43,346 nt of DNA from Roseiflexus sp. (lineage in GTDB: Bacteria; Chloroflexota; Chloroflexia; Chloroflexales; Roseiflexaceae), in NCBI GenBank assembly GCA_025062325.1, contig JANXAL010000132.1:1-43346 (forward strand), written 5' to 3'. The notes under the pieces were generated by a model that was given only the letters and a program-made list of their open reading frames with translations, did not search any database and had not been told where the DNA came from. Made by a program: the position numbers and the translations under genes. Below, piece after piece: positions 12,110-13,615 of the stretch. Within the stretch, counting starts at the first letter, position 1, and every line of letters starts with the position of its first letter.

Positions 12110-12244
12110 GTGGGTCACCCCCTTTCATTGCTGCCTGACCGGCTCTCGCAGCAACGCGCTGCGTCATAATGTCTGCCCGCGCAGGTCACTCCTGTCGCTC
12201 CTTGCATCCGAGCATGCCGAAGCTCCATAGTGTCAACAATATTA

Positions 12245-12260
12245 CGCGGGTTTCACCGCG
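12245..12260. promoter_or_regulatory. Inverted repeat at the puf transcription start (candidate operator)
   Basis: CGCGG (12245-12249), 6 bases, CCGCG (12256-12260). It begins immediately downstream of the minus-strand TATAAT, so it covers the expected +1 position. A bound protein there would block initiation. Confidence 0.45.
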
Positions 12261-12290
12261 ATTATACCGCTGAAAAAGCAACCTCGTCAA
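12261..12290 (-). promoter_or_regulatory. puf operon promoter
   Basis: Read on the minus strand: TTGACG (12290-12285), 18 bases, TATAAT (12266-12261). This is a strong sigma-70-type promoter with the predicted start near 12254, driving pufB onward. Confidence 0.7.
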
Positions 12291-12392
12291 TCAAAACATC
12301 TTACACATATACTATGCAAGGGTTATGCAGATCGTGTGCAGAAGCCAGAGTTGCGAAGTTGTAACACTGCGTCAGAGTATGCACTACAGCGT

Positions 12393-12420
12393 TTGACATT
12401 CCCTCTGCGTATACTATAAT
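12393..12420 (+). promoter_or_regulatory. Consensus promoter of the MerR/B12 regulator gene
   Basis: TTGACA (12393-12398), 16 bases, TATAAT (12415-12420): both hexamers are perfect. The predicted start lies near 12427, about 185 bases before the ATG at 12614. Confidence 0.7.
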
Positions 12421-12613
12421 AAAGCCCTACAGTCCTAGCCAAAAGGAGGGGAAGAAGCGAGGAACCTTGCTTCACCCTGCTATCGCCGCTGCCGTGTCGC
12501 AGGGTGATCTGCGGCGCTGACCGTGTGCGTGGCATTGCTCCCCGGCTCCTTTGCTCTGCAAACGCCGCGGCGCGCATGCCGACGCTTGACCGTTCTAGAG
12601 ATGGAGAACCCCC

Positions 12614-13615
12614 ATGTTGGAGCAGGTCCATCGCCTGCTGGCGCTGTCCGACGTCCCACGCTACAACATCAAGGCAGTCGTTCAGCAGACCCAGGTCAAT
12701 GTTTCGACGCTACGCGCATGGGAGCAGCGCTATGGCGTTCCGCGCCCGACTCGTTCCGATCACGGTCACCGGCTCTACTCGCAGCGCGACATCGAGATCA
12801 TCAAGTGGCTGAAACAGTGCACGGAGGAAGGTCTGGCGATCAGTCAGGCAGTTGCGCTCTTGCGCGATATCAGCGATGCGAGCAATCTCGCATCCCGCAC
12901 CCCGCCTCCGCCTCCGCCGACGCTCGCTGAAGCGGGCTGGCCCGACCTCCGCACCCAACTGACCGAGGCATTACTCAGCACCAACCTGCGCCAGGCGCAC
13001 CTGCTGGTCAATACCGCAGTTGCGCTCTTCCCAATTGAAACCCTGGTGCTCGATCTGTTCCAACCGATGCTGATCGAGATCGGTGAACGCTGGGCGCAGG
13101 GCGACGTCTGCGTTGCAGAAGAGCGCGTGGTGACCAACTTTGTACGTCAGCGGCTTCTCGGGTTGCTGCAGATCCATGCGCCGTTCGCCACCGGTCCGCG
13201 CCTGATTGCCGGGTGCGCGCCGGAAGAACAGCACGAGATTGGGCTGATCATGTTCTCGCTGCTCATGGAACAGCGCGGCTGGGAACTGATCTACCTGGGA
13301 CAAACGGTGTCGGCGGAAGGGTTGGACGGCTTTCTAGTGCGCTTGGCGCCAGCGCTTGTCTGCATGTCGGTCTCGATGGCGGAGCATATTCCCGGCTTGC
13401 TGGAAATTGCACGGATCGTTGAAAACCGTCGCCGCCATCGGTTGGTGTTCGCGTATAGCGGTCAGGTGTTCGACCGCCATCCTGAACTTCGAGGGCGCAT
13501 CCCTGGAATCTTTTTGGGCAACGATTTGCGCGAGGCGGTGATCCGGGCCGACGATCTCGGCGAGGAGATTGATCCGGAGCGCTGGGCGCGACAGGCGCAC
13601 CTCTTCCGCCATTGA
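12614..13615 (+). CDS. MerR-type regulator with cobalamin-binding domain (CarH/LitR-like)
   Basis: A 333-residue protein with a MerR winged helix (residues 18-85: VSTLRAWEQRYGVPRP, HRLYSQRDI), a proline-rich linker (96-103), a four-helix B12-binding cap (about 108-190) and a Rossmann B12 domain with the lower-ligand motif EQHEIG (His207), SVS and SG. In CarH the cap carries W-H and W-x9-E-H; here it reads Trp160-Ala161 and Trp160-x9-Glu170-Arg171, so the upper-ligand His of light-state CarH and the paired His are missing. The ATG has GGAG 7 bases upstream. Divergent position beside pufB suggests control of the puf operon. Whether it senses light or cobalamin alone cannot be read from the sequence. 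Confidence 0.88.
   Translation: MLEQVHRLLALSDVPRYNIKAVVQQTQVNVSTLRAWEQRYGVPRPTRSDHGHRLYSQRDIEIIKWLKQCTEEGLAISQAVALLRDISDASNLASRTPPPPPPTLAEAGWPDLRTQLTEALLSTNLRQAHLLVNTAVALFPIETLVLDLFQPMLIEIGERWAQGDVCVAEERVVTNFVRQRLLGLLQIHAPFATGPRLIAGCAPEEQHEIGLIMFSLLMEQRGWELIYLGQTVSAEGLDGFLVRLAPALVCMSVSMAEHIPGLLEIARIVENRRRHRLVFAYSGQVFDRHPELRGRIPGIFLGNDLREAVIRADDLGEEIDPERWARQAHLFRH

What the first reader, a model, noticed from the sequence alone, without database searches (positions are those of the whole stretch)
12121..13615. B12-binding MerR regulator divergent from the puf operon, with a changed photoreceptor site
The protein has CarH-type domains, but the two cap positions that hold histidines in CarH (after Trp and in the W-x9-E-H motif) are Ala161 and Arg171, while the Trp, Glu and lower-ligand His207 remain. 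Its gene is back to back with pufB through two near-consensus promoters. It could be a cobalamin- or light-dependent switch for antenna and reaction centre with chemistry different from CarH. What is seen: residues, promoters, orientation. CarH roles are established knowledge. Control of puf is inference.
Basis: partly seen in the sequence, partly recalled or inferred. Interest (0 to 1): 0.8.

Follow-up and report, generated by a model that had tools for sequence, protein, structure and literature searches.

The report
CarH-like regulator dedicated to puf operon
Next to the photosynthesis genes of a Roseiflexus-type bacterium sits a relative of the vitamin-B12 light sensor CarH that has lost CarH's light-switch histidine, has its own DNA docking site fixed beside the photosynthesis promoter, and is co-encoded with a protein predicted to fold like a phycobiliprotein, making it a good candidate for the missing regulator of photosynthesis genes in these bacteria.

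Summary
In detail: a MerR + B12-binding protein (12614-13615) lies divergent from pufB through two near-perfect sigma-70-type promoters, with Trp160, Glu170 and His207 kept but Ala161 and Arg171 where CarH has histidines. Comparison goes well beyond it. (1) The puf-linked protein is one clade (22 sequences, Roseiflexaceae plus one genome of another family); none has His at position 161. A paralogue with the intact CarH motif sits beside phytoene synthase. (2) An array of 11-bp TnnRCA repeats, the CarH operator design, lies at fixed distance and phase upstream of the pufB -35. The core pair is present in 17 of 18 loci from regulator-bearing genomes and 0 of 24 without it, whereas distance to the regulator's own promoter drifts from about 50 to over 800 bp. 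So puf is the likely target, from an activator-like position. (3) The conserved downstream gene (13785-14228) is predicted to have a phycobiliprotein fold (VIA Z 16), recalling photocobilins, but Roseiflexus lacks PF01126 heme oxygenase. Cobalamin binding, DNA binding, activation and partner contact are untested. It works like CarH on DNA but fails CarH's defining photoreceptor motif. No transcription factor for photosynthesis genes had been identified in filamentous anoxygenic phototrophs (PMC7308566, 2020).

The parts
12614..13615 (+). puf-linked CarH-family regulator ('type 1'): MerR HTH, four-helix cap, B12-binding Rossmann domain; W160, A161, E170, R171, H207
12302..12345 (+). CarH-type operator-like array: four tandem 11-bp repeats TACACATATAC / TATGCAAGGGT / TATGCAGATCG / TGTGCAGAAGC (TnnRCA in register), 12-45 bp from the first base of the pufB -35
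   Evidence: the three-repeat pattern TRYRCA(N5) occurs only here in the 4.7 Mb genome
12261..12290 (-). pufB promoter-like site TTGACG-18-TATAAT
   Evidence: conserved in all compared loci
12393..12420 (+). regulator promoter-like site TTGACA-16-TATAAT (12/12)
13785..14228 (+). conserved downstream gene, 147 aa, predicted phycobiliprotein/photoglobin fold; probable operon partner
13671..13746 (.). strong palindrome in the regulator-partner gap; the longest gaps occur in Roseiflexus (11-33 nt in most other genera)
11942..12118 (-). pufB (LH beta)
11789..11923 (-). pufA (LH alpha)
   Evidence: just under the Pfam cut-off, conserved position
9622..11547 (-). fused pufLM reaction centre
8569..9534 (-). 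pufC reaction-centre cytochrome
7512..8435 (-). bchG-like UbiA prenyltransferase

Best explanation
The gene encodes a CarH-family transcription factor dedicated to the photosystem. It descends from an ancient paralogue of the carotenoid regulator CarH. It binds tandem 11-bp repeats directly upstream of the pufB -35 and, from that face- and distance-fixed position, most likely activates puf transcription (or holds it in a regulated state) rather than blocking the promoter. It most likely still holds cobalamin through His207 under Trp160, but without the upper His and usually without Glu-His it does not use CarH's light-triggered bis-His tetramer collapse; it would report cobalamin form or redox state, as AerR does in purple bacteria, or be set by its co-encoded phycobiliprotein-fold partner. 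Shown by sequence: family, residues, paralogy, synteny, operator array and its fixed offset, partner gene. Predicted: folds. Inferred: DNA binding, cobalamin binding, activation, contact with the partner.
For: Fold and domains match TtCarH (B12 domain rmsd about 2.9 A over about 200 columns). Puf-linked clade 100/100 in the tree, separate from crtB-linked CarH paralogues. In all 22 members W160, H207 and G210 are kept while position 161 is A/V/M/I/L and never H; 39 of 42 other homologues have H there. Published: TtCarH H132A keeps the dark tetramer and AdoCbl but mostly fails to monomerise in light (PMC10442372). Operator: published CarH sites are tandem 11-bp nnnnTnnACAn repeats (PMC9304148); here the repeats sit at +12/23/34/45 (or 11/22/33/44) from the pufB -35, the two distal units in every puf-linked locus; core pair 17/18 with regulator against 0/24 without; chance at that offset 2e-4 in shuffles. 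Distance to the regulator's own promoter varies from about 50 to over 800 bp. G003, whose regulator lies on another contig, still has the array at pufB. The strict array pattern is unique in the genome.
Against: No binding or expression data. The loci are related, so the Fisher p (7e-11) overstates independence. The motif was partly read off this site before being relaxed to TnnRCA. Known CarH proteins are repressors; an upstream site could also block an UP element or act by wrapping. G001 has puf but no type-1 gene and keeps a partial array (2 of 4 units). Q38 replaces R in the recognition-helix RxWERRY motif, so DNA contacts may differ. Loss of EH in many members could mean loss of cofactor dependence altogether.
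Confidence: 0.6

Rival explanations
1. B12-independent regulator, like Myxococcus CarA: it binds the array constitutively and is controlled by a protein partner (the downstream phycobiliprotein-fold protein playing the antirepressor role of CarS), the cobalamin site being a relic.
For: EH lost or changed in most members (R, Q; E to V in three), GxxxP lost in all, the GG motif often SG or AG. CarA is a CarH paralogue that lost the Wx9EH motif (PMC9304148). A co-encoded partner is conserved.
Against: CarA loses the Trp; here Trp160 and the lower-ligand motif (D/E)xHxxG are kept in all 22 sequences, which is odd for a relic.
Confidence: 0.2
2. Light-dependent AdoCbl repressor working essentially like CarH, with a variant upper site: dark tetramer on the array shuts puf, light releases it.
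For: The array is of CarH type. CtMerR, with Arg at the His132 position, still goes from tetramer to monomer in light (PMC11796333).
Against: CtMerR keeps the EH, GxxH and GxxxP signature elements; this protein has ER, ExxH and GxxxS. The array does not overlap -35 or -10 of pufB as CarH operators do; the paralogous CarH promoter in the same genome has such an array over its TTGACA.
Confidence: 0.13
3. The regulator controls only itself or other genes and its place beside puf is incidental synteny.
For: Divergent regulators often autoregulate; in some genera repeats also overlap the regulator's own promoter (L010).
Against: The array follows the pufB promoter at fixed offset while distance to the regulator promoter drifts; it persists at pufB where the regulator is unlinked (G003) and the core pair is absent in genomes with puf but no regulator.
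Confidence: 0.05

Closest known systems
CarH / class I LitR (T. thermophilus, B. megaterium, M. xanthus)
   Same: MerR HTH plus four-helix cap plus B12 Rossmann fold; cap Trp and lower-ligand His; tandem 11-bp direct-repeat operator
   Different: No His after the Trp; ER instead of EH; GxxxP lost; site placed upstream of -35 rather than over it; linked to puf, not crt; NCBIfam CarH score 146 against a cut-off of 400
CarA (Myxococcus xanthus)
   Same: CarH paralogue with a degraded Wx9EH motif
   Different: CarA lost the Trp and is tied to CarS and carotenoid genes; here Trp is kept and the target is puf
AerR/PpaA with CrtJ/PpsR (purple bacteria)
   Same: B12-domain protein tied to photosystem genes; SAerR has a cap Trp and lower His and lacks the upper His ligand; weak profile match to the AerR chain 7te2 (E 4.5e-6)
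   Different: AerR has no DNA-binding domain and acts through CrtJ; PpsR homologues were reported absent in Chloroflexus and Roseiflexus (PMC7308566)
CtMerR (Chloracidobacterium thermophilum, 8JBS)
   Same: MerR-B12 protein without His at the His132 position
   Different: Keeps EH and GxxxP and is a demonstrated green-light receptor
Photocobilins / photoglobins and BBAG globins
   Same: B12-domain protein encoded with a phycobiliprotein-like globin; model matches smURFP (Z 16.2) and SasPcob 226-345 (Z 13.5)
   Different: Here two separate genes, one a DNA-binding regulator; partner lacks the CXRD Cys; no PF01126 heme oxygenase in Roseiflexus

Membership tests
CarH (AdoCbl photoreceptor repressor) | MerR HTH + B12-binding_2 + B12-binding domains | tested here: met
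CarH (AdoCbl photoreceptor repressor) | Intact Wx9EH cap motif | tested here: not met
   W160-x9-E170-R171; H at 171 in 7 of 22 clade members only
CarH (AdoCbl photoreceptor repressor) | His following the Trp (bis-His light state; common but not universal) | tested here: not met
   A161; never His in 22 clade members
CarH (AdoCbl photoreceptor repressor) | Lower-ligand motif D/E-x-H-x2-G | tested here: met
   E205-Q-H207-EI-G210, conserved in all 22
CarH (AdoCbl photoreceptor repressor) | GxxxP and GxxH signature elements | tested here: not met
   G229-QTV-S233 and E204-EQ-H207; P at 233 in none of 22 (signature from PMC11796333)
CarH (AdoCbl photoreceptor repressor) | NCBIfam NF052513 equivalog cut-off | tested here: not met
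   146.2 bits against 400
CarH (AdoCbl photoreceptor repressor) | Tandem 11-bp TnnACA direct-repeat operator at the target | tested here: met
   TACACA TATGCA TATGCA TGTGCA in 11-bp register; met with the motif relaxed to TnnRCA
CarH (AdoCbl photoreceptor repressor) | Operator overlaps -35 or -10 (repression) | tested here: not met
   Array starts 12 bp beyond the pufB -35
CarH (AdoCbl photoreceptor repressor) | AdoCbl-dependent tetramer, light release | not testable with these tools
   needs purified protein
CarA (B12-independent) | Loss of the cap Trp | tested here: not met
   W160 in all 22
AerR/PpaA | B12 domain without DNA-binding domain, acting via CrtJ/PpsR | tested here: not met
   MerR HTH present
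Photocobilin | B12 domain and photoglobin in one chain, W..EH kept | tested here: not met
   two genes; ER
Phycobiliprotein / BBAG / photoglobin (downstream gene) | Phycobiliprotein globin fold | tested here: met
   predicted model only: Z 16.2, rmsd 2.5 over 131 to smURFP
Phycobiliprotein / BBAG / photoglobin (downstream gene) | Recognisable sequence family (PF00502) or CXRD Cys | tested here: not met
   no Pfam or PF00502 match over cut-off; xxRE in place of CXRD
Phycobiliprotein / BBAG / photoglobin (downstream gene) | Bilin binding | not testable with these tools
   no PF01126 heme oxygenase or PHY phytochrome in any of the six same-genus genomes

The most novel reading that the evidence does not exclude
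A two-protein, photocobilin-like sensor in trans: a cobalamin-holding DNA-binding regulator and a separately encoded phycobiliprotein-fold globin (carrying a bilin or another tetrapyrrole, perhaps a bacteriochlorophyll precursor) together gate the reaction-centre operon of an anoxygenic phototroph.
Probability: 0.25. Interest if true: 0.9.

Novelty: new variant of a known kind. Interest (0 to 1): 0.77.

Why it matters
[quoted passage not shown] This locus gives a named regulator, a defined DNA site, a natural control (the canonical CarH paralogue in the same cell) and a candidate partner, so the question becomes testable in vitro. It also shows a B12-domain regulator tied to the photosystem in a lineage unrelated to purple bacteria, by direct DNA binding rather than through CrtJ (inferred), and a CarH paralogue in which the light-ligand histidine is absent in the whole clade.

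Tried and rejected
Incidental synteny: rejected by the fixed operator offset. Classical MerR activation with a 19-20 bp spacer: pufB spacer is 18 bp in the window (17-18 in regulator-bearing loci, 16-17 in nearly all others; G001 has 18 without the regulator), so not supported. Type-1 gene as a recent Roseiflexus duplication: rejected, the clade is separate from all type-2 sequences and includes another family. Regulator in other phototrophic Chloroflexota: Chloroflexaceae and family f29 have only other B12-domain homologues, and no array at pufB. Sequence homology of the partner to phycobiliproteins by HMM: none; a register-matching but weak hit to a Chloroflexaceae photocobilin C-terminal domain (i-E 0.01 in a six-sequence search) is suggestive only. 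Which partner residue would match the biliverdin-contacting Asp270 of SasPcob could not be settled. A second 4x TnnRCA site in the genome lies over an MFS transporter promoter and was not pursued.

Full report
What is there. The window belongs to a Roseiflexus-like genome: close relatives of this locus at 91-97% protein identity come mostly from MAGs labelled Roseiflexus, and the reaction centre is a fused PufLM. The 333-aa ORF at 12614-13615 has a MerR HTH, a four-helix cap and a B12-binding Rossmann domain. Its model (pLDDT 85) matches T. thermophilus CarH structures best.

Clade and paralogue. Every one of 26 Roseiflexaceae genomes searched has a homologue. There are two kinds. Type 2 is a CarH with intact W-H-x8-E-H; in the loci examined it usually lies beside squalene/phytoene synthase (crtB; cluster c2, Pfam confirmed for four loci), both in Roseiflexaceae and in Chloroflexaceae; its upstream DNA in the window's genome has three 11-bp repeats, the middle one containing TTGACA, which is the published CarH operator design. 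Type 1 is the puf-linked protein. It forms one clade with 100/100 support, separate from the rest (midpoint root), and includes one genome from another family of the order (G076, L139), where pufB and the regulator are again divergent. In Roseiflexaceae, 19 of 22 genomes with pufLM have type 1; the exceptions are G001, G006 and the 60%-complete G024, and type 1 without pufLM occurs only in an 82%-complete genome whose regulator sits at a contig start.

Changed site. In 22 type-1 proteins Trp160, His207, Gly210 and Gly283 are invariant; position 161 is A (12), V, M, I or L and never His; position 171 is R, H or Q; Glu170 is E except V in three; Pro of GxxxP is lost in all. In 42 other homologues position 161 is His in 39 and 171 is His in all. 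By the SignatureFinder signature for AdoCbl light receptors (GxxW, EH, GxxH, GxxxP; PMC11796333) the window protein keeps only GxxW. TtCarH H132A still makes the dark tetramer with AdoCbl but mostly does not fall apart in light (PMC10442372). So a CarH-type light release is unlikely, while cobalamin binding through His207 under Trp160 is plausible; SAerR has the same pair, Trp94 and His145 (PMC9144470).

Operator. The conserved core of the intergenic DNA holds four tandem 11-bp units at 12302, 12313, 12324 and 12335. Three in a row match TRYRCA only at this place in the whole genome (pattern taken from the site). Under the looser published-type motif TnnRCA, the units sit at 12/23/34/45 bp (or 11/22/33/44) from the first base of the pufB -35. 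The two distal units are present in 17 of 18 loci from genomes with type 1; the eighteenth (G003, regulator on another contig) has the first three units and TCTACG at the fourth. They are present in 0 of 24 loci without type 1, although those pufB promoters are as good; chance of the core pair at that offset in shuffled DNA is 2e-4. Loci are related, so the Fisher p of 7e-11 is not a count of independent events. The distance from array to the regulator's own promoter ranges from about 50 to over 800 bp. The array therefore belongs to puf. Assuming the pufB start lies about 7 nt beyond the -10, the repeats lie near -48, -59, -70 and -81, one helical face, just upstream of -35: an activator-like position, unlike CarH operators, which overlap -35 or -10. 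That is inference.

Partner. A gene of 147 aa follows (13785-14228), 11-33 nt behind the regulator in most genera, 72-90 nt in Kouleothrix and 59-188 nt in Roseiflexus; in the window a strong palindrome intervenes. It has no Pfam family. Its model (pLDDT 88, pTM 0.84) matches only phycobiliprotein-type structures and biliprotein derivatives in the top 50 of Foldseek, and VIA-align gives Z 16.2 to smURFP, 15.1 to allophycocyanin and 13.5 to the biliverdin domain of the photocobilin SasPcob. Helical models can reach Z 13-14 by arrangement alone, so the case rests on the uniform top list, the near-full coverage and the pairing with a B12 protein. Photocobilins join these two domains in one chain (PMC10979010) and BBAG-2 globins are encoded beside B12-binding proteins in myxobacteria (PMC10151467). 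Against a bilin sensor: the linking Cys is absent, and Roseiflexus genomes have no PF01126 heme oxygenase and no PHY phytochrome, though Kouleothrix has both.

Judgement. Shown: gene, residues, clade, paralogue, synteny, array and its fixed offset. Predicted: folds. Inferred: binding of cobalamin and DNA, activation, partner contact. It works like a CarH on DNA but should not be filed as CarH, since the defining cap motif was tested and not met. I did not find a paper in the held library that describes this locus, and PMC7308566 states that such factors were unidentified in these bacteria.

Noticed in passing
window 13785-14228: 147-aa conserved gene with predicted phycobiliprotein fold in an anoxygenic phototroph without PF01126 heme oxygenase; ligand unknown.
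   Followed up: partly
window 13671-13746: Strong palindrome (RNA fold z -4.2) with repeated GAGCCGTTGC between regulator and partner genes.
   Followed up: partly
L002 / L099 (G000:C93): Canonical CarH-like paralogue beside crtB with its own three 11-bp repeats over TTGACA.
   Followed up: yes
L161 about 2985-3023 (G000:C20:15985-16023): Second genome-wide four-unit TnnRCA array, over the promoter of an MFS transporter.
   Followed up: partly
L139 (G076:C94): Phototrophic member of a family (f4) in which no other genome searched had a PufB match, with puf operon and divergent type-1 regulator.
   Followed up: partly
L199, L195: Photocobilin-like proteins in Chloroflexaceae (B12 domain plus C-terminal globin-like domain, E 7e-30 to 8j2w) and Kouleothrix (weak phycobilisome-domain match before the B12 domain).
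   Followed up: partly
L196, L197, L198, L200: Proteins of about 700-765 aa, in three Chloroflexaceae genomes and one Roseiflexaceae genome (G006), ending in a CarH-type B12 domain with intact WH..EH behind an unidentified N-terminal part.
   Followed up: no
pufB promoters: pufB -35/-10 spacer is 18 bp in most Roseiflexaceae and 17 bp in all Chloroflexaceae examined.
   Followed up: no
window 14356-18144: Three minus-strand genes that look like a transglutaminase, alpha-E and circularly permuted ATP-grasp trio (from memory of these families, not tested).
   Followed up: no
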